A DNA stretch of 64,000 nucleotides from Prauserella marina (GTDB lineage: Bacteria; Actinomycetota; Actinomycetes; Mycobacteriales; Pseudonocardiaceae), in NCBI RefSeq assembly GCF_002240355.1, contig NZ_CP016353.1, forward strand, positions 3,398,501 through 3,462,500. The letters are read 5' to 3'. How positions within the stretch are numbered: the first letter of the stretch is position 1; the number at the start of each line of letters is the position of its first letter. Shown piece after piece: positions 16,249-33,840 of this stretch. The translations under genes and the position numbers were made by a program. The notes under the pieces are model-generated. The model was not told the DNA's origin. It did not search any database and was given only the letters and a program-made list of their open reading frames with translations.

Positions 16249-16778
16249 CCGACAGTTTCCTCCGCGGCCGTTGATCAACCCCTACCAAACGCTGAGACTG
16301 TACTAGGGGAACGGCGCGGTTCCGTCAGTGGTGTGTTCATGCCCTTTATGGACATTCCCTTACCTGGGAAAACAGGGGGTAGTGACCGTCGGTCGCGAAG
16401 CCTCACGGCGTCACACCCGCCCTCGCTTCCACCAGCCGGAAAGTAACGAGGGTCCCGTAACAGAAAGTTCCACCGTGCCTTTTTTCGTGGCCCACAACGT
16501 GCCGTGACCTCGCGGCGTTCCGATTTCCTTGCCGGGCAACGACTCCGCGTGCCAGCCAAGGCACGCTCCGTTGTGTACTCGACAGGTTGTGGCCATGATC
16601 TTGCTCACTGGCCCGCGCACTCCGTGACCGGTGAAGCTCCCGCACGGACGCCCCCCCCCCGGGGGGCTCGTTGCTGGTTGTCCGTTTCGCTCCCTGGCCG
16701 ACCTGGAGTTCGGTACGCTCCGCGGCGCGAGAGCACGGCCGCCGTCCGTGCCAGCGGGGCGCCAGAGGGGGAGAGCCA
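16249..16778. other. 530-base divergent intergenic region
   Basis: No convincing gene lies between the acyltransferase and the membrane protein. The stretch is less GC-rich than its surroundings near 16300-16480, contains the promoters of both genes by position, and includes the homopolymer block at 16651-16666. Short open frames here lack ribosome sites and recognisable content. Confidence 0.6.
16651..16666. repeat. C10-G6 homopolymer block
   Basis: Ten cytosines are followed directly by six guanines, about 113 bases upstream of the membrane protein start. It may be a length-variable tract that affects promoter spacing, or a sequencing/assembly uncertainty. Confidence 0.9.
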
Positions 16779-17537
16779 GTGAATCAGCAGGGTTATCCAG
16801 TACCACGGCAGTCACCCGCGAGGCAGCCGGCGTCACCGGGTGTCCTGGTCGGGGTGAGCCTCTGGCGGTTGCTGATCGTGGCGTTCGCGTTCATCGGTTT
16901 CGGCTCGATCGTCGGTGAGCACGGCTGGGAATCCGCGGGGCCGGGCCTGAGCCAGCAAGCCAGCCTGCTCGTGGGCGTGGTGTACACCGGTTTGCTGTGC
17001 TATCCGCTTTTCACCGGCGGGAAGGCGCACGAGCCGCGTTCGCCGTGGCTGCGCGGCGCGATGACGGTGTTGTTGCTGCTGGTCGCGGTGACCTTCCTGA
17101 CGATCATGGGTGGCTCGCTCGACGAGACGTGGTCGCTGTTCGAGCACCTGCTGACCCCGCTGGTGGTGCTGATCGACTGGGCCGTGGTCGGGCGCAACCA
17201 GGCCAACGTGAAGTGGTGGCATCCGCTGACGTGGATCGTGTTCCCGGTCGCCTACCTCATCTATTACCTGGCCGCCGACGTGGGCCTCTATCGCGGCTTC
17301 CTCGATCCCGACAGCAGTGGCTTCGCTGGGACGATCCTCGGTTTTCTGGCTGCGGTGATCGTCGCGGGTTACGTGCTGTACGGCGTCGCGAAGCTCAAGG
17401 CGGCCGCGGCCGCTGGCAACCAGGCACACTCCCCGTACCCACCCGCACCCCAATATTCGCAGGGGCCGTACCCGCCGGGGCACCAGCATCCCCAGCAACC
17501 GGCGTATCCATCGCCGCGAGATCCGTGGCAGCGCTGA
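16779..17537 (+). CDS. Pr6Pr-like membrane protein with Pro/Tyr-rich tail
   Basis: 252 residues with about six membrane helices (residues about 25-45, 58-75, 90-108, 118-134, 148-166 and 183-203). The motif WWHPLTWIVFPVAYLIYYL and the overall topology resemble the Pr6Pr family of actinobacterial membrane proteins of unknown function. The C-terminal tail is rich in Pro, Tyr, Gln and His (AHSPYPPAPQYSQGPYPP), a common feature of actinomycete membrane proteins. The GTG at 16779 follows GGGGGAGAG. The stop is three bases from repeat array A. Confidence 0.8.
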   Translation: MNQQGYPVPRQSPARQPASPGVLVGVSLWRLLIVAFAFIGFGSIVGEHGWESAGPGLSQQASLLVGVVYTGLLCYPLFTGGKAHEPRSPWLRGAMTVLLLLVAVTFLTIMGGSLDETWSLFEHLLTPLVVLIDWAVVGRNQANVKWWHPLTWIVFPVAYLIYYLAADVGLYRGFLDPDSSGFAGTILGFLAAVIVAGYVLYGVAKLKAAAAAGNQAHSPYPPAPQYSQGPYPPGHQHPQQPAYPSPRDPWQR

Positions 17538-17540
17538 CTC

Positions 17541-17615
17541 CGCGAGTCCCCCGTCCAGGACGCCGAGTTCCGCGCTCAGGGCCACGAGATCCGCGTCCAG
17601 CACAGTGAGTTCCGC
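17541..17615 (-). repeat. 21-bp tandem repeat array A (minus orientation)
   Basis: On the minus strand: three 21-base units (17595-17615, 17574-17594, 17553-17573) beginning GCGGAACTC, GCGGATCTC, GCGGAACTC, then a terminal unit GGGGGACTCGCG (17541-17552). Unit pattern is GCGGAWCTC-N6-CTGGAC or a close variant, with alternating A/T at position 6. The terminal unit abuts the stop of the membrane protein gene. It is paired with oppositely oriented array B. Confidence 0.9.
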
Positions 17616-18161
17616 GCTCGCCTCACTCCGAACCAGCGGAGGCATCCGCCCGCCCCGGACAGCGCGCGCACGGAACTTCGTTCAACCGAGCCGGGTGAGC
17701 TGTCAACGGAGCTCGCCCGCGCCGCGCGACCCACGTTCGGCGACGAACGCCGTTCGTTCCGGTTGATAGTTCGTGGAGGGATGTCGCGGGTACCTCGCTC
17801 GGCGCGGTCGCGCAGGTGTGAGATGCCCGTTCGCGTGGCGCTCCGCTCCACCTGTGAGTCCGTCTTGGCCGCGTTCGTCGCGGTCCGGACGCCACGCCGG
17901 TTCTCCCGCCCCGGTGAGTAATGCCCGTTCGCCGCTCGCCTGAAGTCCCGCTGACACCTCGGTGCTCCCCCGGGGCCGCGCTGACGCCCCGCCGCACTCC
18001 TGCGGTCTCCGCCTACGCCCCGCCGTTTTTCGCGCGGCCAGCTGTTCCCGCGCGCGGGAACAGCTGGCCGACGACCCGCGCGAACGGAGCCAGTCACGGG
18101 GATCACCTGCCCGTTCGCGGTGTGCGACCGCCTTGGGCGAACTTCTCAGGCCGCCACGAGC
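17616..18161. other. spacer between repeat arrays A and B
   Basis: 546 bases between convergent genes with no credible coding region. It holds a perfect 36-bp palindrome (18035-18070) and three copies of the short motif CCCGTTCGC (about 17825, 17923 and 18111). The open frames crossing it are GC-bias artefacts without ribosome sites. It is flanked on both sides by the outward-facing 21-bp arrays. Confidence 0.6.
18035..18070. terminator. perfect 36-bp palindrome downstream of kynU-kmo
   Basis: CGGCCAGCTGTTCCCGCG is followed with no loop by its exact complement. It lies about 140 bases past the kmo stop. As RNA it would form a very stable hairpin, so terminator is the default reading; a dimeric protein site is the alternative. 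T5 sits on its upstream (+) side, which does not make a canonical intrinsic terminator in either direction. Confidence 0.6.
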
Positions 18162-18262
18162 GCGGTTCTCGATGTCCTGGACGCGGATCTCACGGCCTTG
18201 AATGCGGAACTCACCGTCCTGGGTGCGGATCTCGGCGTCCTGGACGGGGGACTCGCGCACGG
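18162..18262 (+). repeat. 21-bp tandem repeat array B (plus orientation)
   Basis: Units start at 18162, 18183, 18204 and 18225 with GCGGTTCTC, GCGGATCTC, GCGGAACTC and GCGGATCTC, each exactly 21 bases, followed by the terminal unit GGGGGACTCGCGCACGG at 18246. The last two units run through the kmo 3' end on the opposite strand. It is inverted relative to array A. Confidence 0.9.
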
Positions 18263-19596
18263 GCCAGCACGCGGAGCAGGGCACCCAGCGCGCCCAGCAG
18301 GCCGAACGCACCGATCGCGCCCAGCACACCGAGGAGCTGGTGTTGTCTGCGCACCCTTCGCCGCACGGCGCCGTACGGCACCGTCGAGAAGGACACCAGC
18401 TCGTAGCGGGACACGTACCGGCCCGGCAGCGCGCGTTCCAGGGCGTGCTCGACGGTTTTGCCCAGTTTGAACAGCGGCGAGGCGACCTTGTCGCGCATCT
18501 CCACGAAGTTGGCCAGCGCCATGCTCGCGATCGCCTCGGTGTCGGTGCGCCGCCGCTCGAACAGCGCCAGCGCGGCAGGCCAGTCGCCGCCGGCCGCGTC
18601 GAGGCAGTCCTCAAGCACCACGACATCCTCGAACGCGCAGTTGGCGCCTTGCCCGTAGAAGGGAACGATCGCGTGCGCGGCGTCACCGAGCAAACCCACG
18701 ACGCGCGCTCCCGCCACCACCGCGTGCCAAGGCGCGCACCGGACGGTGCCGAGCACACCGACAGGGTTGCGCTGATAGTCGGTCACCAGCTCGGGCAGAT
18801 ACGGCTCGACGTCGGGGTAATTCTCCCGGAAGCAGGCACGAATGGCGGTGGGGGTGTCCAGCGCGGCGAAGCTTCCCGCGCCACTGTCCGGCCAGAACAG
18901 GGTGCACGTGAAAGACCTGTCGGGGTTGGGCAACGCGATCATCATCGACCGGCCGCGTGGCCAGATGTGCAGCGCGCCCTCATCCACGACGAACCCACCG
19001 GACCCGGCGGGGACGGTCAGCTCCTTGTATCCGTAGTCGAGAAGGTCGACCGTTTCGGAGCTGAGCCCGTGCCGGACGAGCTCGCCACGCACGGCCGAAC
19101 GCGCGCCGTCGGCGCCGATGACGACCGGCGCCGACCCGGTCCGGACACCGTCTGGGGTGCTGAACCGCAGTTCGCCGCTCGCGGGATCGAACCGGTCGAG
19201 CCGGTGGGAGAACCTGATCTCGATGTTCGGCCGCGCGTGCGCGGCGGTGAGCAGGACGTTGTTGAGCGCTCCCCTGCTGATCGAGTTGATGGCCAGCGTG
19301 CCCTCCGCGCTGTAGGGCTGGAAATCCAGTTCCCCCGCCACCGGGTGGATCATGCGTCCCCGCATGGGCAGCGCGTCGGCCAGTACGGCGTCCTCAAGCC
19401 CGATCCCGCGCAGCGCGGCGATCCCGCGTTCGGACAGCGCGAGGTTGATGGAACGGCCCTGCTCTGGTCCGGTGAGCCGGGGGTCGGCTCTGCGCTCGTA
19501 GACGATCACCCGCTCACCACGCCTTGCGAGATAGCAAGCCAGCAGGCAACCGGTGAGTCCCGCACCGACGATCGCGACCGATGGGCTGCCGGTCAT
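18211..19596 (-). CDS. kmo: kynurenine 3-monooxygenase
   Basis: 461 residues. It converts L-kynurenine to 3-hydroxykynurenine with FAD and NADPH. The N-terminal Rossmann motif is GAGLTG (11-16), followed by GRSINLALSERG, the kynurenine-monooxygenase-specific stretch, and GDAAHAIVPFYGQGANCAFED for FAD. The C-terminus is strongly hydrophobic (LLGVLGAIGAFGLLGALGALL), like the membrane-associating tail of other KMOs. The last 18 or so residues (RVPRPGRRDPHPGR) and the stop are encoded by the complement of repeat array B. It is coupled by ATGA (19593-19596) to kynU; GGAGG precedes the ATG. Confidence 0.93.
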   Translation of the reverse strand: MTGSPSVAIVGAGLTGCLLACYLARRGERVIVYERRADPRLTGPEQGRSINLALSERGIAALRGIGLEDAVLADALPMRGRMIHPVAGELDFQPYSAEGTLAINSISRGALNNVLLTAAHARPNIEIRFSHRLDRFDPASGELRFSTPDGVRTGSAPVVIGADGARSAVRGELVRHGLSSETVDLLDYGYKELTVPAGSGGFVVDEGALHIWPRGRSMMIALPNPDRSFTCTLFWPDSGAGSFAALDTPTAIRACFRENYPDVEPYLPELVTDYQRNPVGVLGTVRCAPWHAVVAGARVVGLLGDAAHAIVPFYGQGANCAFEDVVVLEDCLDAAGGDWPAALALFERRRTDTEAIASMALANFVEMRDKVASPLFKLGKTVEHALERALPGRYVSRYELVSFSTVPYGAVRRRVRRQHQLLGVLGAIGAFGLLGALGALLRVLARARVPRPGRRDPHPGR

Positions 19597-20867
19597 GAGA
19601 CCTCCGGGAGAAGCGCGGCCAGCGCGGCAGCGGCCCGCCAGCAGTCGTGGTGGGTCGAGTACAGGGCGGTCGGCGCCATGCGCAGCACATCCGGTTCCCT
19701 GGCGTCGGCGACGACCCCGAATTCGCCGCTCAGCCGGGAACACAGCGCCGCGGCACCGGTCCCGACCCTGATCGACACCTGGCTTCCCCTGCGCGGCGGA
19801 TCCGCTGGGGTGAGCACGTCCGCGCCGATACCTTCCAGCAACTCGTACAGGTAGCCGCTCAGCCGCATCCCACGCGCCCTCAGCACGTCCATGCCGATGT
19901 CGTCGAACAATCGCAGCGACGTCAGCACCGGCGACATCGCCAGTATCGGCGGGTTCGACACCTGCCACGCATCAGCACTGGCCGGTGGGCGGGAAACCGG
20001 TGCCATCTCGAACCGGGTCTGTTCCTCCGTGCTCCACCAGCCTTCCAGCCGGGGCGGCCCCGCACCGCCGAGATGCCGCTCGTGGACGAACGCTCCGGCG
20101 ACCGCACCGGGACCCGCGTTGAGGTACTTGTACGAGCACCACGCGGCGAAGTCGACCTCCCAGTCGTGCAGCCGCAGCGGCACGTTGCCTGCCGCATGGG
20201 CGAGATCCCAGCCGACGACCGCCCCCGCCGCGTGCCCAGCCGCGGTGATGGCCGAAATGTCCAGCAATTCTCCCGTCAGGTAGTTGACCCCGCCGAGCAA
20301 CACCAGCGCGATGTTCTCGCCACGCGCGGCGAGAACATCGCGCACCTCGTCGGCCGAACGGGCGCGCAGTACCGTGCTGTCGGGATCGAGACCGTGGAAG
20401 ACGGCCTGGCTGCGCACCGCGTAGCTGTCCGAGGGGAAAGCCGTGTCCTCGATGAGGATGCGGGTGCGCGTGCCCCGGGGACGGTAGAACGACACCATCA
20501 GCAGATGCAGGTTCACCGTCAGCGAGTTCATGACGACGGTTTCGCGTGGCAGCGCGCCGACAAGCCGCGCGGCGGGTTCGGTCAGCAGCGCGTGATACGG
20601 CAACCACGGGCGCAGGGCGTCGTGGTGACCTTCGACGCCGAGCCTCGCCCATTCGCCGAGGTCTTCGAGCAGCCGGTTCCGAGTCGCCACGGGTTGCAGG
20701 CCGAGTGAGTTTCCCGCGAGATAGGCGGAATCGGAGTAGCGGCCACCCCTGGCTGGAGGGATCAGGAACCTGTCGCGATGTCCGGGGTCGGCGGCATCGC
20801 GATCGAGCGCGCCCGATTCGGCCGCGCCGAGCGCCATCGCGGCCGTCCCGCCGTCCGGGTCGTTCAT
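19593..20867 (-). CDS. kynU: kynureninase
   Basis: 424 residues, the usual length. A PLP enzyme cleaving kynurenine or 3-hydroxykynurenine to (3-hydroxy)anthranilate and alanine. WCSYKYLNAGPG gives the PLP lysine at about residue 247, and GWDLAHAAGN gives the PLP-ring Asp at about 221. GGAGG lies 8 bases before the ATG at 20867. It is first in a two-gene operon with kmo; tryptophan dioxygenase and formamidase are absent here, so supply of kynurenine must come from elsewhere. The product set (3-hydroxyanthranilate) fits NAD salvage, catabolism or secondary-metabolite precursor supply. Confidence 0.95.
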   Translation of the reverse strand: MNDPDGGTAAMALGAAESGALDRDAADPGHRDRFLIPPARGGRYSDSAYLAGNSLGLQPVATRNRLLEDLGEWARLGVEGHHDALRPWLPYHALLTEPAARLVGALPRETVVMNSLTVNLHLLMVSFYRPRGTRTRILIEDTAFPSDSYAVRSQAVFHGLDPDSTVLRARSADEVRDVLAARGENIALVLLGGVNYLTGELLDISAITAAGHAAGAVVGWDLAHAAGNVPLRLHDWEVDFAAWCSYKYLNAGPGAVAGAFVHERHLGGAGPPRLEGWWSTEEQTRFEMAPVSRPPASADAWQVSNPPILAMSPVLTSLRLFDDIGMDVLRARGMRLSGYLYELLEGIGADVLTPADPPRRGSQVSIRVGTGAAALCSRLSGEFGVVADAREPDVLRMAPTALYSTHHDCWRAAAALAALLPEVS

Positions 20868-21070
20868 GACCGCACCTCCGTGGCGTCACAACAACAACAC
20901 CAGCAATAACACACCGCCGCCGCCCGTGCCGCACCATCGAAGATCAACTTCGGTGACCCCGGTCCCGCACGCCACCGCCGATCTGTTTTGATCTTGGCTC
21001 GCGGCCCGCACGTCCCGCGCCGCCGGAGCCGTACCGAGCCTCCACTTTTCGTTCGGATCAAGGGAGAACC

Positions 21071-21952
21071 ATGGACCTGCCACCGGTCCCAGCCAGCGTC
21101 ACCGCCTTGATCGCCTCAGGGAATCTGCCACCCGAACTGGCCCCGTTGTTCACAGCGGAAGGGCAACTGGCGGCCGACACGGACTGGGCACACGTCGCCG
21201 AGGCAGGAGAAGACCATCTCGCCGCCTCCCCCGACGAACCCCACCGCGCGGCACTGGCCCTGGCCTGCGCCTACGGCCGCCTCGAAGACGCCGACGACGG
21301 CGTCGCCGATCCCGAACGCATGGCAAAGGACACCAGCAAAGCCATCACCCTGCTCGAACTGGCCGAGGCAACCGGAATCAACGAGGACGAGACCGCGCCC
21401 CTGTGGTCGTTCGCCCACCGCATGGAAGACCTCGCGGCCGAACTCATCGACGAAAACGCCGACCTGGACGCCTACATCACCGAACACGGAACGACCCCAC
21501 GCGAACAACTGCACACCAAGCTGCGCGACGCACACGACCGCTACGCGGCAGGCGACCGCGCCGCCGCGCTCACCCTGTTCCGCCAAGTCGCCGAAACCGA
21601 CATGTGGCTCACCTTCAGCGGCGGCGGCGACATCACCGAACCCATCGACATCGCATGGTGCCGCCTGCTCGACGACGCGGCCCACTCCGAAGGACCGGAC
21701 GCGGCGCGCGAGATCTGGCGGGAAGCCGCCACCGCCTACCGGGGCGCGACCTTCCCGCGCGTCGACCACGCGTGCCCCCTGATCGACGTACTGCTCGGAA
21801 CCGGCGTACCGGACATCGTCGCGGCCATCGCCGACATGCGACTACGAGCCGCCGCGCCGGACCAACCCTCCGGACTCCTGCCATGGCCACTGGACGAACA
21901 CGAACGCCACATCCTCGACCTCGCCTCGGCCGAAATCGCGGCCTCCGGCTGA
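21071..21952 (+). CDS. hypothetical helical (TPR-like) protein
   Basis: 293 acidic residues, predicted soluble and mostly helical, with TPR-like stretches (HRAALALACAYGRLEDADDG; DAHDRYAAGDRAAALTLFRQVAETD). No catalytic motif and no named family recognised. AGGGAG lies 5 bases before the ATG. It diverges from kynU across a 203-base gap and is followed by a hairpin at 22073-22092. A role as a scaffold or regulator is only a guess. Confidence 0.75.
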   Translation: MDLPPVPASVTALIASGNLPPELAPLFTAEGQLAADTDWAHVAEAGEDHLAASPDEPHRAALALACAYGRLEDADDGVADPERMAKDTSKAITLLELAEATGINEDETAPLWSFAHRMEDLAAELIDENADLDAYITEHGTTPREQLHTKLRDAHDRYAAGDRAAALTLFRQVAETDMWLTFSGGGDITEPIDIAWCRLLDDAAHSEGPDAAREIWREAATAYRGATFPRVDHACPLIDVLLGTGVPDIVAAIADMRLRAAAPDQPSGLLPWPLDEHERHILDLASAEIAASG

Positions 21953-22072
21953 GCACCAACGCCGAAAGCCGGGCAAAGGCCGGAATCCCATGGCGCGCAG
22001 CACTTGCCGCCACCCCGGCCTCGAACCGGCATCCGCGCTGTTCCCGACCTTCGACGGTGACACGATCGGGTT

Positions 22073-22092
22073 GGAAGGTTTACGGACCTTCC
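22073..22092. terminator. hairpin downstream of TPR-like gene
   Basis: GGAAGGT and ACCTTCC pair around a 6-base loop, extended by partial GGG/CCC pairing outside. It lies about 120 bases after the TPR-like gene and 60 before the next small gene. Confidence 0.5.
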
Positions 22093-22151
22093 CAGCCCAC
22101 CACCACCGGCGCTTAGTGTGTTGCAGTCGGACGATGGGGAGGTTGTCCTGA

Positions 22152-22364
22152 ATGGTGGTGTCGAGTATGTCGCCGGAGCAGACGGAATGGCTCGATCGTC
22201 AAGCAGACGACGCGCGAGCCGTCATCGCGGACCTGCACACGGCGGCCATGCGAGCGTTACTCGCGGGCACCGGAAACAACGCCACCACACAGGACTCCGA
22301 GTCATCGTCGCCGAAAACCGGCTGGTTCCACATTGATTCGGCAACCACCAGCCCGGCCGAGTGA
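22152..22364 (+). CDS. small hypothetical protein
   Basis: 70 residues, no family recognised. GGGGAGG lies 9 bases before the ATG, which supports real translation. The first half is a polar helix (MSPEQTEWLDRQADDARAVIADLHTAAMRALLAGTG); the rest is Ser/Thr-rich. It lies in a run of very small genes before the two-domain VOC gene, an arrangement common in actinomycete accessory regions. Confidence 0.5.
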   Translation: MVVSSMSPEQTEWLDRQADDARAVIADLHTAAMRALLAGTGNNATTQDSESSSPKTGWFHIDSATTSPAE

Positions 22365-22488
22365 CACATGACCGAGCACAGTGGACGGAAAACGGTTCAC
22401 GCACACAAGCCCGTCACCCGGCAACCCCGCGTGACGCGGACCAGCGAACAGCCTTGAGATCCCGCACCTCGCTCTGAAGGGATGAGTT

Positions 22489-22719
22489 GTGCGCGCCACT
22501 GAGATACAACTGCTGGTGGGCGACAAGGTCACCTACACCGCAGCACAACCCACGAACCACCAAGAACCCCGCGAGCACGGAAGCGTTGTCGCGACACCTG
22601 TTTTCGACCGCTACACCACCACGTGGTGGGTTCCGGTCCGCCCCGACGGCGCCGCGGCCGACACCGAGCCGGACTGGGTCAGCGGACGGCGGATCGTCGA
22701 GGTCGAGTCAGTGCCATGA
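22489..22719 (+). CDS. small hypothetical protein (beta-rich)
   Basis: 76 residues starting at a GTG with GAAGGG about 7 bases upstream. The sequence alternates short hydrophobic strands and turns (EIQLLVGDKVTYTAA, TWWVPVRPDG, RRIVEVESVP), suggesting a small beta-barrel. Its stop overlaps the next start in ATGA (22716-22719), so the two are translationally coupled. The function is unknown. Confidence 0.6.
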   Translation: MRATEIQLLVGDKVTYTAAQPTNHQEPREHGSVVATPVFDRYTTTWWVPVRPDGAAADTEPDWVSGRRIVEVESVP

Positions 22720-22868
22720 GCACACCGACGACACCGGCCGACGTCCACACCGAAAGGCCACCGGCCGATGGCGAACGCACCCCGATCTTCGACGAGGTCG
22801 TCAACCAGAGCGGCTACCACTGGCCCCAGGCGTGGCCCCAGGAGTCAGCCGACGAACCCCGCGGCTGA
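22716..22868 (+). CDS. very small hypothetical protein, coupled
   Basis: 50 residues, acidic and polar, with one aromatic patch (NQSGYHWPQAWPQE). Translation probably depends on coupling through the ATGA overlap with the preceding 76-residue gene. No homologue recognised. Confidence 0.5.
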   Translation: MSTPTTPADVHTERPPADGERTPIFDEVVNQSGYHWPQAWPQESADEPRG

Positions 22869-22898
22869 CGCCGCTCGACCCCACCCAGCCCCGAAAGA

Positions 22899-22927
22899 TG
22901 ATCAACAGAACCGGCCGGGACTATAGT
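22899..22927 (+). promoter_or_regulatory. sigma70-type promoter
   Basis: The -10 hexamer TATAGT (22922-22927) matches the consensus at 5 of 6 positions and lies 17 bases after a weak -35 TGATCA (22899-22904). An ATG follows the -10 by only 6 bases, the configuration of leaderless actinobacterial mRNAs. Confidence 0.6.
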
Positions 22928-22933
22928 GCCCCC

Positions 22934-22996
22934 ATGCTGCCTCACCGGGACTTCACACTCCGCCCCGCCCCGAATGAGCGGAGCGCGCGGGCATGA
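22934..22996 (+). CDS. 20-codon leader ORF, probably leaderless
   Basis: An ATG placed 6 bases after TATAGT opens a 20-codon basic ORF (MLPHRDFTLR at its start) whose TGA overlaps the VOC gene ATG in ATGA (22993-22996). The geometry suggests that the mRNA starts at or near this ATG and that the peptide's translation feeds the VOC gene. The frame is too short to judge by codon use. Confidence 0.45.
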   Translation: MLPHRDFTLRPAPNERSARA

Positions 22997-23811
22997 GCAC
23001 ACCCGTCGCGCCGGGAACCCCCTGCTGGATCGAACTGGCCACCCCCGACCTCGACCGCTCCATGCGGTTCGGCCAAGAACTCTACGGCTGGCACTTCGAA
23101 CGCGTACGCGACTCGGCCGGCGAAGACTACGTCATCGCGCTCCTGTTCGGAGAACCGGTAGCCGGCCTGCGCCGCCACCCAGCCGACATCCTCGACTGGA
23201 CCGTGTACCTCGCCACCGACAATCTCAGCACCGCGGGCAACCACGCGAGCAAACTCGGCGGACGAGTACTCCACCCCCGACCACACGCCGTACCCGGAGT
23301 CGGCACGAAAACCCTCATCGACGACCCCAGCGGCGCCACCGTCGGCCTACTCCAACCAGCCGCCGACTGGGCCTTCACGGCAGGTGTCCCCGGCGCACTG
23401 ATCTGGCTGGAGTTCGTCACCCGCAGGGCAACACTCGCCGACCGGTTCTTCGGCAGCCTGTTCGGCTACGACCAGCGCCAGTACGGCAACGGCAGGACCA
23501 TCGACTACGTCGTCTACTCCCACGGCGACGACTCGGCCATCGGCAGAGTCCGCATGGCAGCCGACACCCCCGCCGACGTACCACCCCGCTGGATCGCACA
23601 CTTCGCCGTCGACCCCGACCTCGGATTCGACAACACCCTGCAACGCGCGAGAGCCGCAGGCGCCAGGCTCCGCTTCCAGCCCTACACCAACTCACTCGGC
23701 AAAGTCGCCGTCATGTCCGACCCACTCGGAACCCGGTTCGCCATCATCGACCCCTCACTGGCCTCCGAATGGACCTTCGGCTCCGCGGCCGACGACCCCT
23801 ACGACGACTGA
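22993..23811 (+). CDS. two-domain VOC-family protein
   Basis: 272 residues with tandem VOC modules: residues about 8-120 (CWIELATPDLDRSMRFGQELYGW, ending DDPSGATVGLLQPA) and about 130-260 (LIWLEFVTRRATLADRFFGSLFGYD, ending SDPLGTRFAIIDPS). This matches the CFP-30B-like/hydroxylase group of unknown chemistry common in actinomycetes. It has GGAG 9 bases upstream and overlaps a 20-codon leader ORF. It is convergent with the YCII gene. Confidence 0.85.
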   Translation: MSTPVAPGTPCWIELATPDLDRSMRFGQELYGWHFERVRDSAGEDYVIALLFGEPVAGLRRHPADILDWTVYLATDNLSTAGNHASKLGGRVLHPRPHAVPGVGTKTLIDDPSGATVGLLQPAADWAFTAGVPGALIWLEFVTRRATLADRFFGSLFGYDQRQYGNGRTIDYVVYSHGDDSAIGRVRMAADTPADVPPRWIAHFAVDPDLGFDNTLQRARAAGARLRFQPYTNSLGKVAVMSDPLGTRFAIIDPSLASEWTFGSAADDPYDD

Positions 23812-23871
23812 CCCGGACCGGGACGGCCCCAACGGCCGCCCCGGTCCACCGCACAGCACGGCAAAACCCGA

Positions 23872-24267
23872 TCAGGCCCCGAAAACCGACACCTCGTCGA
23901 CCGGCCGCACCTCGACCGCCCCGAACCTACTGTCCGGAAACCGCGACGCGATCTCCACCGCACGCCGCTCACTCTCGCAATCGAGAACGAAATACCCGGC
24001 CAGAACCTCCTTCGCCTCACCGAACGGCCCATCGGTCACCACCGGAAGCCCATCCACCGGCCGCACCGTCCTCGCCCGCGCGGGAGACCCCAGCGCAACA
24101 CCCGACACCAGCTCACCCGAGGCCACCAACTCGCTCGCCAACACCTCAGCCTCACCAGAAACCTCGGCCCGCTCCCGCTCGGACAACGCCTCGAACCCCG
24201 CGTCCCGCTCGAACATCGGATGCTCCCACCGCGTGGGGTTGCTGTAGATCAAGAGCAAATACTTCAC
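23872..24267 (-). CDS. YCII/DGPF-domain protein
   Basis: 131 residues starting MKYLLLIYSNPTRWE with the family core VTDGPFGEAKEVLAGYFVLDC at about 78-98. It resembles the ECF42 partner at 11596 but has no sigma gene beside it. Its start overlaps the upstream VOC stop in ATGA (24264-24267), so the pair is co-translated. Confidence 0.85.
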   Translation of the reverse strand: MKYLLLIYSNPTRWEHPMFERDAGFEALSERERAEVSGEAEVLASELVASGELVSGVALGSPARARTVRPVDGLPVVTDGPFGEAKEVLAGYFVLDCESERRAVEIASRFPDSRFGAVEVRPVDEVSVFGA

Positions 24268-24689
24268 TCCGGCTCCTCCTCACCACGCTTCGCGGCGACA
24301 CCAGCCACCCCGACCACATTCCCCTCCGGATCCACGAACCGACCGACTACAAGACCACCGGGCTCCGCCTCCGCCGGTTCCGGCCCCAGCACCACCGTCC
24401 CACCTAGCCGCCGCGCCTCACGCAAGGCTTCCCCCACATCGTCGACACCCACATAAAACAACGCCCTGCTCGCATACCCGGCACCACCGGCCACCCCGCC
24501 ATTGATCCCCATCACGCCCTCCTGCTCCGTCGTCGCACCATCGACGAACCCGTACTCACCCGGCGCCGACACCGCGTCCGTCGCGGCATCACCGACCTGG
24601 AACCGCCAGCCGAACAACGCGCCATAGAACTCACGTAGCCCAACCGGATCCGAACCGATCACCTCGAAATGCACGACAGGCTGTCCCAT
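24264..24689 (-). CDS. VOC-family protein (glyoxalase-like)
   Basis: 141 residues, one VOC domain: VVHFEVIGSDPVGLREFYGALFGW at the start, YVGVDDVGEALREARRLGGTVV in the middle and GRFVDPEGNVVGVAG at the end. GGGGAG lies 4 bases before the ATG at 24689. It is coupled to the YCII gene. The substrate is unknown. Confidence 0.88.
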   Translation of the reverse strand: MGQPVVHFEVIGSDPVGLREFYGALFGWRFQVGDAATDAVSAPGEYGFVDGATTEQEGVMGINGGVAGGAGYASRALFYVGVDDVGEALREARRLGGTVVLGPEPAEAEPGGLVVGRFVDPEGNVVGVAGVAAKRGEEEPE

Positions 24690-24794
24690 GATCTCCCCTT
24701 CCGTAACCGACCGGCGCCGCCCAACGCGACGCCACCCCCATAGGTCGAAGCCACGAACCCCCGCTCGACATCCCCACCACAATCGCGCCCCGAA

Positions 24795-25370
24795 TCACCC
24801 ACCCACCGGATAACGGCCGAGCACCCCACGCACCAGAACCCGGGTCGCCGACCCCGTATCCACCAGCGAACCCGTCGTCAAGCCCGTGAACACGATCCCC
24901 AGCACCCCCATCTCCAGCACCTCGGCATCCTCGTCGCTGATCGCGATCCCCGCGGCCACACACTGCTCGACGATGAGAGCACGCCTTCGAGCCAGCGCAC
25001 CCGCCAGCACACGTCGTACAGCCACGTCCCTCGTACCAACCAGATGCAACTCGAACAACGCCAACGGCTCGTCCGAAAGATCAGTCACCATCGACGTCAG
25101 CACCGTCACCAGCGCCTGTTCAAGGTCGGCAGGCTCAAGCGGGCGCACCACCTGAGCGGCCACCCGCTCGTCCAGCCGCGTCATAAACCGCTCCACGATC
25201 CCCGTGATCAGCGCCTGCCGCGTCCGGAAATACCGCGACGTCGTCCCAGCGGGAACCCCGGCAGCGGCATCCACCGCCCTGTGCGTCAAGCCATGAGAAC
25301 CCTGCGCGGCAAGCACCCCGATACTCGCGTCGGCCAGCAGATCTCTGCGTTGCGAATTAGGACGCGGCAC
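24795..25370 (-). CDS. TetR-family transcriptional regulator
   Basis: 191 residues. HTH at about 10-57 (GLTHRAVDAAAGVPAGTTSRYFRTRQALI), then a TetR_C-type domain. The GTG at 25370 lies 14 bases inside the 3' end of the FAD monooxygenase gene, so the two are an operon and the regulator probably controls it through the repeats upstream of the monooxygenase (26805-26834). Confidence 0.88.
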   Translation of the reverse strand: MPRPNSQRRDLLADASIGVLAAQGSHGLTHRAVDAAAGVPAGTTSRYFRTRQALITGIVERFMTRLDERVAAQVVRPLEPADLEQALVTVLTSMVTDLSDEPLALFELHLVGTRDVAVRRVLAGALARRRALIVEQCVAAGIAISDEDAEVLEMGVLGIVFTGLTTGSLVDTGSATRVLVRGVLGRYPVGG

Positions 25371-26793
25371 GGTCGGCTCGTTCTCCTCGTTCAGCGGTTT
25401 CCACAGGACCACACCATTCCAGCAGCGCCGACCCCAGCCGGTCGCGGTGTCCGGCCCACGCCACATAGCCGTCCGGACGAACAAGCACCGCCCTCGGCCC
25501 CACCGCACCTACCGGAACACCCGTCACCACCCGCTCCGCCCACCACCCAGTCAACAGCCCGGGCTCCCCGGCCAGCACGACGAACCTCCCCTCCCGCAAC
25601 AACCGGTACAACCGGTCGCCGCCCGCCAGTGCCCAATCCGGCGCCCTGCGCCCGGCAAGCCGGTCGGCGCCCGGCGCGTACGCGATCTCCAACCCCGACA
25701 GCACACCGAGAATCCGGCGCCGCCCCGCGACGGTGCGCAATGCCGCCGCCATCGCGACCCGGTTCAACCGCTGCCGGACCCGCGACCTCGTCAACACCAG
25801 CCGTGTCAGGTGATCCGTCATCGCCAGCACTCGCTCACCAACGGGATGCCGTTCCGAGTGATAACTGTCGAGTAACCACGGCGGTGCCTCGCCTCGCACC
25901 GCCGCGGCCAGCTTCCAACCGAGATTCACCGCGTCCTGGATACCGGTGTTCATGCCCTGTCCACCGATCGGCGAGTTCACATGCGCCGCGTCCCCCACCA
26001 GGAACACCCGCCCCGACCGGTACCGGCGAGCCTGCCGTCGCTGCGCCACGAACCGCGAGAACCAGCGCGGTTCACTCATCCCGTAATCGGTTCCCGCTAT
26101 CCGCACGAACGCGTCCCTGATCCGCCCGAACCGCGCTTCGTCCCGCTCGTCGTTGTCGAGCAACCACGCGCCGACCCGGAACCAGCCGTCGCCGAACGGA
26201 AGCGTCACCACCGCCCCCGCCTCGCCGATCTGAGTGATGGGTGGCGTCGCACCGGGAATCCGCACGTCCGCGAGCAACATCGGCAGGTCGTAGGTCTCGC
26301 CGGTGAACCCGACATCGAGCAGGCCGCGCACGGTGCTGTGTGCCCCGTCGGCCCCCACGACGTACCTCGCATCGAGTTCGGTCCCATCGTTCAACCCGAC
26401 CCTGACCGAGTCCGGAGACTGAACGAGCCCGACGACCTCGCCTCTGAACATGCGCACCCCAAGCGCTGAAACCCGCTCTCGCAGCGCCCGCTCGGTGCCG
26501 CTCTGCGGGACGATCAACATCATCGGATAGCGGGTGCGCAGGCGCCCGAAATCCACTCGCGAGGCATAGCCGGGGTGGACCGTCCGCATGGGATTTCCCT
26601 CCGCGACCAGCCGGTCGGCGAGCCCACGAGCGTCGAGCAGTTCCAGCGCTCTGGCGTGCAAGCTGAAAGCTCGCGTGACGCCGCTTTCGCCGTCCCGTTT
26701 CTCGACGATCACGCACGACACCCCGCGCATGGCCAGTTCGGCTGCCGACATCAGTCCCGCTGGCCCGGCCCCCACGACGATCACGTCATACAT
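25357..26793 (-). CDS. FAD-dependent monooxygenase (PheA/TfdB-like)
   Basis: 478 residues. Motifs: GAGPAG at about 8-13, GADGAHSTVRGLL mid-protein, and GDAAHVNSPIGGQGMNTGIQDAVNLGWKL for FAD. The C-terminal domain is shorter than in the monooxygenase at 3818. It resembles rifampicin-type and polyketide hydroxylases as well as phenolic hydroxylases, so drug modification is one option. The ATG at 26793 starts at the Rossmann strand, preceded by GGGGGC. It lies in an operon with the TetR gene. Confidence 0.88.
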   Translation of the reverse strand: MYDVIVVGAGPAGLMSAAELAMRGVSCVIVEKRDGESGVTRAFSLHARALELLDARGLADRLVAEGNPMRTVHPGYASRVDFGRLRTRYPMMLIVPQSGTERALRERVSALGVRMFRGEVVGLVQSPDSVRVGLNDGTELDARYVVGADGAHSTVRGLLDVGFTGETYDLPMLLADVRIPGATPPITQIGEAGAVVTLPFGDGWFRVGAWLLDNDERDEARFGRIRDAFVRIAGTDYGMSEPRWFSRFVAQRRQARRYRSGRVFLVGDAAHVNSPIGGQGMNTGIQDAVNLGWKLAAAVRGEAPPWLLDSYHSERHPVGERVLAMTDHLTRLVLTRSRVRQRLNRVAMAAALRTVAGRRRILGVLSGLEIAYAPGADRLAGRRAPDWALAGGDRLYRLLREGRFVVLAGEPGLLTGWWAERVVTGVPVGAVGPRAVLVRPDGYVAWAGHRDRLGSALLEWCGPVETAERGERADRAAS

Positions 26794-26804
26794 GAAGCCC
26801 CCAT

Positions 26805-26834
26805 TCGCTACATTCGTATCGCTACATTTATAGC
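26805..26834. promoter_or_regulatory. AT-rich operator/promoter repeats
   Basis: TCGCTACATT occurs twice, at 26805-26814 and 26819-26828, and the second copy forms a GCTA-N6-TAGC inverted repeat to 26834. The element starts 12 bases upstream of the FAD monooxygenase start in a region that is otherwise GC-rich. It is a candidate site for the TetR protein encoded downstream. Confidence 0.55.
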
Positions 26835-26926
26835 GCATACGGCCCGCGCGGGCCAGCACTCCGTTGGTGCTGGTCAGCCGAGTGCGGCACACTCACTCCT
26901 TCACCGGCCGACAATGAAGGAGTCCC

Positions 26927-27355
26927 ATGTCGTTCACCGAAGAAGAGGCTGCCTACCTGCGCTCACAGCCCGTTGCCCGCCTGGCCACGGTCGACGAAAA
27001 AGGGCAACCCGACGTCGTGCCCGTCGCTTGCGAGTACGACGGCAGCTACCTGTGGGTCGGCGGAGTCGGCGCCGGCGTCCTCGCCACGCGCAAGTTCCGC
27101 AACGTCAACGACGGAAACCACCGGGTGGCACTCGTCGTCGACGACCTCGTGTCCTTCGATCCCTTCATTACCAGGTCAATGCGGATCTACGGCCACGCCG
27201 AACAACCCTTCGAAAGGGTCGGAATGGTCGGCCCCGGCACCTTCATGCGCATCACGCCCACCGTGTCGTGGAGCTGGAACCTGGAAGGCGCACCAGCGGG
27301 CGAAACCTGGTATCGGCCCCGCAGGACCGAACACGGATCACCGCCCTCGCCCTGA
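26927..27355 (+). CDS. PPOX-class F420/FMN-binding protein
   Basis: 142 residues of the pyridoxamine-5'-phosphate-oxidase-like split-barrel fold. FTEEEAAYLRSQPVARLATVDEKGQPDVVPVA is the typical N-terminal dimer and cofactor region, with HRVALVVDDLVSFDPF and MRIYGHAEQ following. Actinobacterial members bind F420 and reduce small substrates. A GAAGGAG lies 5 bases upstream of the ATG. It diverges from the FAD monooxygenase across 133 bases. Confidence 0.85.
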   Translation: MSFTEEEAAYLRSQPVARLATVDEKGQPDVVPVACEYDGSYLWVGGVGAGVLATRKFRNVNDGNHRVALVVDDLVSFDPFITRSMRIYGHAEQPFERVGMVGPGTFMRITPTVSWSWNLEGAPAGETWYRPRRTEHGSPPSP

Positions 27356-27524
27356 AAATGTTGTCCGTCCGGAGCGGTTTTTCATGGTTGCTTAGGTGGG
27401 CAAAGGAGGTGTTGTGCGCGCCAATGCCCGGCCGTATAGGCCGTTATACACCTGACTATCGTGAGTGCCATCCGCCTCGGCGAGGTCGACACCCTCCCCC
27501 TTCACAGGGGCGACGTCGCGGCCT

Positions 27525-28166
27525 TCAGCGACTCCCCCGCTCCGCTATCGCGGCGCCCGCCTTGTCCCAGTTGTCATGCAGACGGTCCACATAGGACTGT
27601 GCTTGCGACCCCGGTGTCACTCCCCTTGCGAACTCCGCCATGTTGCCCGCTCCCGCGTTGTATCCCATGGCAAGCAGGTCGTCCCTGCTGTAATCGCCCG
27701 GAAGCTCCGCGGGGAGTTGCGCGTCGAGGTCGTGCAGGTGCCAGGCCGCGGCCTGGACCGCGAGATCCGGATCGTCCGGTAGCTCATGCCAGTCGCGGTC
27801 GGCGAAATCCCTGCCCTGTTTGGTGTCGTTGAAAGCGGCCTCGTGCATGTTCGCGATGCCGAAAGCCGCATCGGGGTCGATCCGCTGCCAGGCCCGCTGC
27901 AACGCCGGATCATGCGGTTTGTACGACTCGTTGTACAAAACGGCCATGAGCAGCCTCGGATTGATGCCGGCGGCGGTGGCGTGTTCCACGACGGGCTCCG
28001 CGAAGCGAGCGACCTCGTCCGAGCCGTCCTCGGGTGAACTCAGTTCACTCGCGGCACCACCCTGCTGTCCTGAACCGGGCCGCTGCTCGTCACGCGTACC
28101 GGCCCACCACACCACGAGCACGACGACGGCCATGACCACGATCCAGCGGCCCCGCTTGCGTGCCAC
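27525..28166 (-). CDS. lytic-transglycosylase-like protein, membrane anchored
   Basis: 213 residues. A basic start and one hydrophobic helix (about 7-22, WIVVMAVVVLVVWWAG) anchor it, followed by a Gly/Ser linker. The SLT-like domain begins near residue 60 with PRLLMAVLYNESY (candidate catalytic Glu) and ends with LLAMGYNAGAGNMAEFARG, the YNAG motif. It would cleave peptidoglycan glycan strands outside the membrane. The GTG at 28166 follows GGAGG by 8 bases. Confidence 0.8.
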   Translation of the reverse strand: MARKRGRWIVVMAVVVLVVWWAGTRDEQRPGSGQQGGAASELSSPEDGSDEVARFAEPVVEHATAAGINPRLLMAVLYNESYKPHDPALQRAWQRIDPDAAFGIANMHEAAFNDTKQGRDFADRDWHELPDDPDLAVQAAAWHLHDLDAQLPAELPGDYSRDDLLAMGYNAGAGNMAEFARGVTPGSQAQSYVDRLHDNWDKAGAAIAERGSR

Positions 28167-28337
28167 GAGCGTCTCCTCCCCTGCTACCCGAGATCCACGG
28201 TACCGCCGACCCACCTGGCGCGGCATGCGCTGAGTCCACAGTGGTCGTGGGAGTACGCCGAAACGACCACACTCCCGGATCGGTGGGCATAAGGTGTCGA
28301 CGGCGGTCAGCGAGACCGGCCGGAGAGGACATGGCAC

Positions 28338-28958
28338 ATGACGGTCGGGCGAGCACGCACCAGGCGATTCACGACGATGCTTGTGGTGGCCATGGCCATG
28401 GTGACAGCGGGTTGCGCGACCCCGGTCGCCGGAGAACCCCGGCCACGGCAGAGCGCCGAGGACGGTCCTGAGCGGCAACCGCGACAGCCAGGCAGCTACC
28501 AATACGTGGCTGGCCTATGCGAACAACTCGACTTCGGCGCGCTGGACGCGCTGTCCTACATCGCCGACAGAGGTGGCAGCGACACCCACACCCCTGGGTC
28601 GCCGTACTCTGCGACCAACTGCCGACTTCTGCACAGCGGACCGGGCGAGACCAGGGGAAACACCTCGCTGCGCATCGAGTATCTGCCCGACCCCGCCGTC
28701 GGTCCCGGCACCTACGAACAGCATCTCGAACAGTTTCGGGACGGGGCGAAAGAGACCTCGCGGCCGGAGGGCGACTGGGAGCAGGCCGAACTCGCCATCG
28801 GCGACGGCGTACACCCGACGGCGGTCCGCATGCTCATGCAGGACGGAAACCTCTGCCTGCGCCTCGACGTCGCGCTCGACGGGCTGGCCGCCGACGATCA
28901 GGTCGCCGGAATCCTCCCCTCCATCGCCGACGAGGTCAGGGAACTCTCGGCGACCTGA
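28338..28958 (+). CDS. DUF3558-family lipoprotein
   Basis: 206 residues. A twin-Arg/basic start, hydrophobic core and lipobox-like VTAGC put the lipidated Cys at residue 26. The mature part has the two Cys characteristic of DUF3558 (LCEQLDFGAL near 60, ATNCRLL near 94) and ends CLRLDVALDGL...REL. DUF3558 lipoproteins are actinobacterial surface proteins of unknown role. It diverges from the transglycosylase gene. Confidence 0.85.
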   Translation: MTVGRARTRRFTTMLVVAMAMVTAGCATPVAGEPRPRQSAEDGPERQPRQPGSYQYVAGLCEQLDFGALDALSYIADRGGSDTHTPGSPYSATNCRLLHSGPGETRGNTSLRIEYLPDPAVGPGTYEQHLEQFRDGAKETSRPEGDWEQAELAIGDGVHPTAVRMLMQDGNLCLRLDVALDGLAADDQVAGILPSIADEVRELSAT

Positions 28959-29173
28959 ACCCCACGCCGCGACGTGTTTCGGGGCTTTCGAGGAAACGGA
29001 AACGACGAGCTTTACCGAATATTTCGGGCGCGCTGGATCAGCTCGCCGGCGTCGCCGAGGACGCGGCCGTGATTCCCCGCCGCACATTGTGTTCTCGCCG
29101 CGAGGTTTATGTCAGCGCTCGGTGGTAGAACAGACCGATACCGGAAACGGGCACTGAGGGGTTAGGAGCTTTG

Positions 29174-29989: not shown

Positions 29990-30158
29990 ACACGGGGCAC
30001 CGAGGGGCCGGAGTAAGCCGACGCTCGTGGTCCGCCCAACGGGAACACGTCCTCGCGGCCGCCCGGTTTCTCCTATCGTCGCCGGTTGAGCCCGCCCGTG
30101 ATGCCTTCGGGCGCACGGCATCGCGGACGGGAGCACGGCCACGGCGAGGAGGAGTTCC

Positions 30159-31079: not shown

Positions 31080-31092
31080 GACGATCGCCGGG

Positions 31093-32655: not shown

Positions 32656-32721
32656 GCGCGGATTGAACCACGAGCAGCCCGGTACTCGCACGCCGTTCCC
32701 GGCCAGCAGCACCACCCGCCG

Positions 32722-32866
32722 CGCCACGCCGCCGAGACCCGCGTCCGTGCGCGAGTCCCCCGTCCAGCCCGCCGAGATCCGCGTCCGCGCCCGCGAGCCC
32801 TGCGCCCATGTCGCCGAGATCCGCATTCGCGACGTCGAGTTCAGCAGTCCGGCCATCGAGTTCCGC
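32722..32866 (-). repeat. 21-bp tandem repeat array C (minus orientation)
   Basis: Minus-strand units begin at 32866, 32845, 32824, 32803 and 32782 with GCGGAACTC, GCTGAACTC, GCGGATCTC, GCAGGGCTC and GCGGATCTC, followed by GGGGGACTCGCGCACGG (from 32761) and a last unit GCGGGTCTC (from 32742). It has the same period, motif and end unit as arrays A and B, with the end unit pointing toward the acyl-CoA synthetase gene. Confidence 0.88.
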
Positions 32867-32992
32867 GTTCACGGCGCCGGGAACTGCCCAGCGGTCCGCC
32901 GACCGGGGCACCACGCCGCCCGGTGGCTAGCCTCGCCGGAAACCGAGAGGTCGAGCTGCCCGAACCCGGTGTGGGCTGCCTGAGCCCGGAAC

Positions 32993-33076
32993 GCGGATCT
33001 CAGCGGCCCCAGCGCAGAACTCGCCGACCTGAGTGCGGATCTCGCCGACCCGGGCGCGGGACTCGCGGGGCAACCG
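32993..33076 (+). repeat. 21-bp tandem repeat array D (plus orientation)
   Basis: Four exact 21-base units begin at 32993, 33014, 33035 and 33056: GCGGATCTC, GCAGAACTC, GCGGATCTC and GCGGGACTCGCGGGG. The end unit stops 4 bases short of the SDR stop codon. It is inverted relative to array C. Confidence 0.88.
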
Positions 33077-33080
33077 GCGG

Positions 33081-33809: not shown

Positions 33810-33840
33810 CGAGTTTCCCCATCTCCGGCCGCCACCGGGA

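What the first reader, a model, noticed from the sequence alone, without database searches (positions are those of the whole stretch)
17541..18262. Two outward-facing arrays of a 21-bp oriented tandem repeat around a spacer (A/B)
Arrays A (minus) and B (plus) share an exact 21-base period, the unit core GCGGAWCTC, alternating A/T at unit position 6, and the same closing unit GGGGGACTCGCG. They face outward from a 546-base spacer that carries a perfect 36-bp palindrome. Units vary at every codon position, which argues against a protein, although in one frame they read as Ala-(Asp/Glu)-Leu heptads without stops. I know of no described element of this form; it could be a structured RNA, a nucleoid-protein array or a REP-like mobile relic.
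Basis: partly seen in the sequence, partly recalled or inferred. Interest (0 to 1): 0.8.

Follow-up and report, generated by a model that had tools for sequence, protein, structure and literature searches.

The report
Oriented 21-bp arrays at gene ends
A soil actinobacterium carries dozens, probably over a hundred, short arrays of an oriented 21-letter DNA repeat, most often in the gap between genes that face each other, and relatives keep such arrays at the same gene ends in altered spelling, which suggests an undescribed kind of transcription stop or boundary signal.

Summary
Arrays A (17544-17627, minus) and B (18150-18254, plus) belong to a genome-wide family: the two-unit pattern has 139+139 matches in the 7.0 Mb genome, none read backwards. 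A second outward pair lies at 32753-32878/32981-33064. Period 21 in 225 of 234 spacings. In the sample, 33 of 46 arrays lie between convergent genes, which are 67 of 440 intergenic gaps; 16 of 16 opposite pairs face outward, but single arrays show no clear polarity. The outer-end unit is special (GGGACTC in 28 of 41 against 9 of 186). Single arms have no RNA fold; arms do not coevolve. Genus mates keep arrays at the same gene ends in other 'dialects'. At mrp/tatB, array genomes lack the strong hairpin of many others (0 of 8 against 19 of 29); inside this genome that contrast is not significant. In Amycolatopsis the unit often faces inward and forms hairpins. Best reading: a gene-end boundary or terminator element, here probably protein-read. 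Coding and RAYT origin are not supported. No description was found. Function is inferred.

The parts
17544..17627 (-). Array A: 4 tandem 21-bp units, starting 7 nt past the last base of the + gene 16854-17537
17544..17564 (-). Outer, gene-proximal 'cap' unit of array A, GGCGTCCTGGACGGGGGACTC
   Evidence: difference of the outer unit
17628..18149 (.). Spacer between the outward arms (522 bp); holds three copies of GCGAACGGGCA on the minus strand
18035..18070 (.). Perfect 36-bp palindrome (hairpin z 8.3 against shuffles), terminator-like but not a general feature of such spacers
18150..18254 (+). Array B: 5 tandem 21-bp units, overlapping the 3' end of the minus-strand FAD monooxygenase ORF
18234..18254 (+). 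Cap unit of array B, identical to that of array A (21 of 21)
16854..17537 (+). Gene upstream of array A (membrane-like by eye, no Pfam match)
18211..19596 (-). Gene upstream of array B: kynurenine 3-monooxygenase-like FAD monooxygenase; its last codons read into the array
   Evidence: Pfam FAD_binding_3; tblastn matches in genus mates stop at residues 420-440 of 461 and the next gene follows directly; the enzyme name is recalled
32753..32878 (-). Second locus, arm A': 6 units, upstream of the likely start of a minus-strand AMP-binding enzyme gene
   Evidence: start codon judged by eye
32981..33064 (+). Second locus, arm B': 4 units, ending 17 nt before the 3' end of a minus-strand short-chain dehydrogenase gene (33081-33809)

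Best explanation
The arrays are cis-acting gene-end boundary elements, used above all between genes that face each other. Transcription leaving a gene runs into the distinctive outer unit and then into a phased row of units. I think the row is read as duplex DNA by a still unidentified sequence-specific protein that sits on the same face of the helix every two turns, and that this stops or insulates transcription between the two genes; at a convergent pair there is usually one arm behind each gene, so the arms face outward from a spacer. Shown: a genome-wide family, exact phasing, concentration between convergent genes, outward pairing, a distinct outer unit, a conserved core without a maintained fold, retention at orthologous gene ends, and at one site an inverse relation to hairpins across genomes. 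Inferred: that the function is termination or insulation.
For: 33 of 46 sampled arrays lie between convergent genes, which are 67 of 440 intergenic gaps and 31% of intergenic bases of the sample. 16 of 16 opposite pairs within 900 bp face outward, none inward. 33 of 46 arrays have a gene 3' end within -60 to +90 nt. In 400 kb picked without knowing hits, the 9 arrays (8 after merging) all point at the nearer gene, which there is a 3' end. 225 of 234 spacings are 21 bp. The outer unit carries GGGACTC in 28 of 41 arrays against 9 of 186 other units (p 2e-18). Of 159 interior units 104 have the exact core and 137 at most one mismatch, while variable positions are nearly as different between neighbours (0.569 identity) as between arrays (0.521). 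Orthologous convergent gene ends carry arrays in the genus: mrp/tatB 4 of 4, dapD/dapC 4 of 4, cobT/ilvE 3 of 4 with one leftover unit in the fourth (read; the sites were chosen because this genome has arrays there). At mrp/tatB a strong hairpin (z>3) is found in 0 of 8 genomes with arrays and 19 of 29 without (p 0.001; 37 of 60 genomes could be scored).
Against: No transcript ends, no binding data, no candidate protein. Single arrays have no clear polarity: between tandem genes 4 of 7 singles are sense to the upstream gene, and in convergent gaps 3 of 6 point at the nearer gene. Within this genome the hairpin contrast is not significant: 5 of 17 convergent gaps with arrays have z>3 against 21 of 42 without (p 0.25), and the locus in question holds both. 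At cobT/ilvE the array locus of G084 scores z 4.6. In Amycolatopsis-type genomes 11 of 14 opposite pairs that I picked by eye from capped listings face inward, and four such loci fold into strong hairpins (z -7.4 to -11.2), so the same unit can work as a hairpin there. Most of the 200 family genomes examined show no excess of the pattern, so the arrays are dispensable or spelled beyond recognition there. Core conservation is somewhat inflated because arrays were found by that core. The genomes of the mrp/tatB test are related, and the array criterion was set after seeing the values.
Confidence: 0.36

Rival explanations
1. RNA-level element: the two arms of a convergent locus pair over the spacer in the read-through transcript, as a giant hairpin that ends transcription or guards the 3' end from exonucleases.
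For: All 16 opposite pairs are inverted outward pairs. Arms pair far better than shuffled partners (mean z -11.7 over 16 pairs). Arms of the related Amycolatopsis element face inward with short loops and fold into long hairpins (z -7.4, -9.9, -11.2, -10.6 against mononucleotide shuffles).
Against: In this genome own arms pair no better than arms swapped between loci (-112.6 against -112.0 kcal/mol, 14 pairs), opposite arms share no variants (0.523 against 0.521), 14 of 46 arrays have no opposite array within 900 bp, spacers reach several hundred bases, and a single arm has no structure.
Confidence: 0.25
2. Selfish or neutral minisatellite: the unit spreads and is homogenised by an unknown drive, and piles up behind gene ends because insertion elsewhere is removed by selection.
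For: Patchy copy number inside genera (in g19, G019 has 1112 pattern hits and five mates of 10-12 Mb have 3-9) and lineage-leaning dialects; the T form of W, common here, is absent from the G014, G053 and G084 units sampled. Local homogenisation shows in runs of like W states. Single arrays lack clear polarity.
Against: A distinct outer unit and strictly outward pairs are not expected of neutral repeats. Orthologous sites keep arrays across the genus. The core is held while the rest is diverged. No Y1/RAYT transposase in the four genomes of the genus.
Confidence: 0.27
3. Supercoiling or nucleoid element: the arrays bind gyrase or a nucleoid protein between convergent genes, where positive supercoils gather, as has been proposed for E. 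coli BIMEs (recalled).
For: Placement between convergent genes (33 of 46 arrays) and helical phasing of 21 bp.
Against: Arrays also lie between tandem genes (12 of 46); no A-tracts in the unit; not tested directly.
Confidence: 0.08
4. Protein-coding heptad repeat.
For: One frame is nearly open (3 stops in 1617 codons).
Against: Second codon positions vary most, 20/22-bp spacings occur, no family match, another dialect puts a stop in this frame.
Confidence: 0.02

Closest known systems
REP/BIME elements (GTAG/CGTC-tagged extragenic palindromes)
   Same: Short dispersed intergenic repeats, mostly behind coding regions and between convergent or unidirectional genes, often as opposite neighbours (passages of PMC3733652)
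   Different: The unit is not palindromic, lies in tandem at fixed 21-bp phase, has a distinct outer unit, and no Y1/RAYT transposase was found in this genome or its genus mates
DNA uptake sequence dialects of Neisseriaceae
   Same: Short repeats with dialects, inverted pairs associated with transcription terminators (passage of PMC3630211)
   Different: Here 21-bp tandem arrays at gene ends; no link to DNA uptake tested; inverted arms do not coevolve in this genome
Clustered TTF-I terminator sites behind mammalian rRNA genes
   Same: A cluster of oriented protein-binding sites behind a gene end that specifies termination (passages of PMC3772059); analogy only
   Different: Eukaryotic, one gene type; no binding protein known here
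Bidirectional hairpin terminators of convergent bacterial genes
   Same: Same place; at mrp/tatB hairpins stand where other genomes have arrays
   Different: No compact hairpin in the array arms of this genome
TAACTGA direct repeats of marine Beggiatoaceae
   Same: Abundant intergenic direct repeats in many sets per genome (title and start of abstract of PMC4679880 in the listing)
   Different: Heptamers, another phylum; only the listing was seen

Membership tests
REP/BIME | Unit is a palindrome forming a stem-loop | tested here: not met
   33 arrays in this genome fold no better than shuffles on either strand
REP/BIME | RAYT (Y1 transposase) in the genome or clade | tested here: not met
   PF01797 in 41 of 200 family genomes; none in G000, G014, G053, G084 or G019; present in 2 of the 25 genomes rich in ACTCGCG arrays, G049 and G172. 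RAYT-less REP families exist by recall
REP/BIME | Extragenic, behind coding regions, often in opposite pairs | tested here: met
Intrinsic terminator | GC-rich hairpin in the element | tested here: not met
   No hairpin in single arms; the local palindrome of this spacer is an exception
Intrinsic terminator | U-run behind the hairpin | not tested
   T-runs were not scanned
Intrinsic terminator | Ends transcripts in vivo | not testable with these tools
   No expression data
DNA uptake sequence | Biased uptake of DNA that carries the motif | not testable with these tools
   No uptake data
Coding tandem repeat | Variation mainly at third codon positions, frame kept | tested here: not met
Known structured RNA family | Match to an Rfam model | tested here: not met
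   0 matches at E up to 0.1 in window 16500-34000
Protein-bound terminator array (TTF-I-like in action) | Sites keep one polarity towards the gene | tested here: inconclusive
   Pairs 16 of 16 outward, singles without clear polarity, mostly inward in Amycolatopsis-type genomes
Protein-bound terminator array (TTF-I-like in action) | A protein binds the repeats and stops the polymerase | not testable with these tools
   No candidate protein identified

The most novel reading that the evidence does not exclude
A dedicated bacterial transcription-boundary system: an unknown DNA-binding protein reads phased 21-bp arrays with a special outer unit at many gene ends in place of hairpin terminators, and protein and arrays have changed together, giving lineage-specific dialects at orthologous gene ends.
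Probability: 0.17. Interest if true: 0.88.

Novelty: new variant of a known kind. Interest (0 to 1): 0.68.

Why it matters
If the arrays end or insulate transcription, Pseudonocardiaceae have a way of marking gene ends that is not a compact hairpin, and that changes spelling across a whole genome while staying at the same genes. That would make two questions testable: how convergent genes are insulated in GC-rich actinobacteria, and how dispersed non-coding repeats evolve in concert in bacteria. Many antibiotic producers belong to this family, so gene-end signals also matter for engineering them (general knowledge).

Tried and rejected
Single-array hairpins: rejected. Covariation inside the unit: the strongest signals are between near positions and show no complementary pattern. 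Arm-to-arm pairing as the maintained feature: rejected for this genome, although arms can pair. RAYT/REP origin: not supported. Rfam: nothing. Coding: rejected. A conserved core of the spacer: not found; the best hairpins of the spacers differ, and the 36-bp palindrome is local. A second motif, CGAACGGGCA, is only mildly in excess genome-wide (50 against 35 reversed). Alternating A/T: not general. Full separation of dialects: only partial; leave-one-array-out assignment is right for 79% of units in G000, 87% in G019, 76% in G044, 65% in G084, 63% in G014 but 19% in G053 (G077 was left out of the choice as too small). The KMO site could not be compared because in the genus mates that gene is followed directly by another gene. 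A syntenic block of 17 genes shared with G053 turned up but was not used. Naming the species through its second contig failed. The paper searches for an earlier description gave none in the rows shown; several lists were cut (for example 15 of 658, 10 of 6,465).

A measure of my own was found empty on re-check: one search counts arrays whose outer neighbour is a gene 3' end (40 of 46, 33 of 33 between convergent genes), but between convergent genes this is true by definition.

Full report
WHAT IS THERE. The window is G000:C1:3398501-3462500 of a 6.99 Mb genome in two contigs. One genus mate, G053, has a contig of 320,027 bases, the length of a Prauserella endophytica contig that carries the same motif (NZ_SWMS01000006.1), so the genus is very probably Prauserella, family Pseudonocardiaceae (lineage). 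Arrays A (17544-17627, minus, 4 units) and B (18150-18254, plus, 5 units) have an exact 21-bp period and end on the same outer unit. A second outward pair, 32753-32878 and 32981-33064, lies in the same window. The perfect 36-bp palindrome of the spacer is real (18035-18070).

A GENOME-WIDE FAMILY. GCGGAWCTC-N10-14-GCGGAWCTC has 139 forward and 139 reverse matches in the genome and none when read backwards. A PWM of the unit finds 40 arrays in the window plus 20 stretches chosen for hits and 9 arrays in 400 kb chosen without knowing hits there; the reversed sequence of the latter set plus the window gives none. The unit is GCGGAWCTCG-SSGN-CCYGRRY. Of 234 spacings 225 are 21, four 22, one 20, one 41 and three 42.

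WHERE THE ARRAYS SIT. Genes were called with a simple codon-usage caller, which is a limit. After merging fragments 46 arrays remain. 33 lie between convergent genes, 12 between tandem genes, 1 between divergent genes; convergent gaps are 67 of 440 intergenic gaps and 31% of intergenic bases of the sample. 33 of 46 arrays have a gene 3' end within -60 to +90 nt. Opposite arrays within 900 bp form 16 outward pairs and no inward pair. In convergent gaps 29 of 33 arrays point at the nearer gene (26 of 27 paired, 3 of 6 single); between tandem genes 7 of 12 are sense to the upstream gene (3 of 5 paired, 4 of 7 single). So outward pairing is firm, while a polarity of single arrays is not shown. An earlier count of mine (40 of 46 with a 3' end on the outer side) is true by definition between convergent genes and is not used. 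The outer unit, usually the one next to the gene, differs: core GGGACTC in 28 of 41 arrays against 9 of 186 other units (p 2e-18; first seen).

WHAT KEEPS THE SEQUENCE. Neighbouring units agree at 57% of the variable positions and units of different arrays at 52%. Of 159 interior units, taken by register between the ends of arrays, 104 have the exact core and 137 at most one mismatch; since arrays were found by a matrix dominated by this core, conservation is somewhat overstated. Single arrays fold no better than dinucleotide shuffles or than arrays resampled column by column, on either strand (33 arrays). The strongest covariation inside the unit is short-range and not complementary. Opposite arms at one locus are no more alike than arms of different loci (0.523 against 0.521; same index from the outer end 0.528 against 0.526) and pair no better than swapped arms (-112.6 against -112.0 kcal/mol), although any two arms pair well because they share the core (mean z -11.7). 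This points to recognition of duplex DNA at a two-turn phase rather than to a maintained RNA fold; it is an inference. A protein-coding reading is disfavoured by the pattern of variation over codon positions and gets no Pfam match; Rfam has none either.

RELATIVES. With GGRWCTCR-N13-GGRWCTCR, 200 family genomes give 1112 hits in G019, 493 in G000, 312 in G129, 223 in G014, 217 in G053, 177 in G077, 112 in G044 and 0-10 in most; in 246 genomes drawn from the class no genome but G000 exceeds 10 (this pattern misses other dialects). With ACTCGCG-N14-ACTCGCG, 25 of 200 family genomes in 9 genera have at least 20 hits (my count; one, G041, also has 33 in the control), while G000 has only 14. So the arrays span at least eight genera, nine with G041, and the spelling differs: in register the consensus units are GCGGaaCTCGccggCctGagc (G000), GgGGgACTCGCGcgCcgGaGc (G014), GCAcgACTCGCGgtCcgGagc (G084), GcgGaACTCGCGGGcgggagc (G044), gCGGGACTCgCGcgCcccagg (G019). 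The separation of dialects is partial (G053 units are assigned correctly in only 19%). Y1/RAYT transposases occur in 41 of 200 family genomes, not in G000, G014, G053, G084 or G019, and in 2 of the 25 array-rich ones.

THE SAME GENE ENDS. Three conserved convergent pairs that carry arrays in G000 were followed in 30 family genomes each, mrp/tatB in 30 more. Within the genus, arrays stand at mrp/tatB in 4 of 4 genomes, at dapD/dapC in 4 of 4 and at cobT/ilvE in 3 of 4, with one leftover unit beside a hairpin in the fourth (read), in varying spelling. At mrp/tatB 37 of 60 genomes could be scored. Eight have a clear 21-bp periodicity (G000, G053, G077, G084, G044, G014, G197, G003) and none of them a hairpin of z>3; 19 of the other 29 have one (Fisher p 0.001). 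The genomes are not independent, and the periodicity criterion was set after the values were seen. Inside G000 the same contrast is 5 of 17 against 21 of 42, not significant (p 0.25), the window's own locus has both arrays and a palindrome, and at cobT/ilvE the array locus of G084 scores z 4.6. So replacement of hairpins by arrays is suggested, not established.

A COUNTER-EXAMPLE THAT TEACHES. In six named Amycolatopsis loci the same core appears as inward-facing arms in four and as a single arm in two within the stretch read; the four inward ones fold into long hairpins (z -7.4 to -11.2). In the capped hit listings of five g15 genomes, which share this spelling and are probably Amycolatopsis, 11 of 14 opposite pairs that I picked by eye are inward. 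Polarity towards the gene is therefore not fixed across the family, which weakens a strictly polar barrier, and the same unit can serve in a hairpin.

MECHANISM. My best reading is a gene-end boundary element that ends or insulates transcription, above all between genes that face each other; in this genome the arms are most likely read as DNA by an unidentified protein. Shown are family, phase, placement, outward pairing, special outer unit, held core, lack of a maintained fold and retention at orthologous sites. Inferred are the function and the protein. The main rivals are a long-range RNA duplex of the two arms and a driven but functionless minisatellite.

COMPARISON WITH WHAT IS KNOWN. It resembles REP/BIMEs in place, DNA uptake sequences in having dialects and inverted pairs tied to terminators, and TTF-I terminator clusters in layout (passages of PMC3733652, PMC3630211 and PMC3772059). 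It fails the palindrome and RAYT tests of REPs, and has no compact hairpin in its arms. Searches of the open-access library showed no description in the rows listed; most subscription papers are not held. Two Pseudonocardiaceae genome papers were searched for the words repeat, intergenic and tandem; the passages mention nothing of this kind (PMC3469384, PMC4210621). I rate it a new variant of a known kind (dispersed gene-end repeats), with a possible but unproven new kind of gene-end signal behind it.

Noticed in passing
L109:19517-19539, L110:16764-16814, L114:17475-17580, L116:2269-2374 (genome G019): A second tandem family with a 22-bp period (GCGTGTCGGCGCTTCCGGTACG) lies in intergenic regions of G019, in three of these four places next to a 21-bp array.
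   Followed up: partly
window 17824-17834, 17922-17932, 18108-18118; L085:5235; L143:7239: GCGAACGGGCA: 5 of its 6 copies in the sampled sequence lie in spacers between array arms, but genome-wide excess of its 10-base core is mild (50 against 35 reversed).
   Followed up: partly
window 18211-18260: The FAD monooxygenase ORF reads into array B, so its C-terminus is partly array-coded; in genus mates the gene ends earlier and an aldehyde dehydrogenase-like gene follows directly (the latter name is from reading the sequence).
   Followed up: partly
L183, L184, L185, L187, L271, L272: Genomes of genus g15 carry long near-perfect hairpins at convergent gene ends that themselves look like dispersed families (for example similar ATGAAGGGGCCTTTCAT arms at two sites of G015).
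   Followed up: no
L174, L180 (G058, G009 mrp/tatB site): Another gene-end repeat with core GTGTCCGCG at about 21-22 bp, combined with a strong hairpin in G058.
   Followed up: no
L107 (G000:C2:40001-60000): 10 kb of the second contig (134,495 bases, perhaps a plasmid) has only short near matches in one record of the plasmid collection (the genome's own record may be left out there).
   Followed up: no
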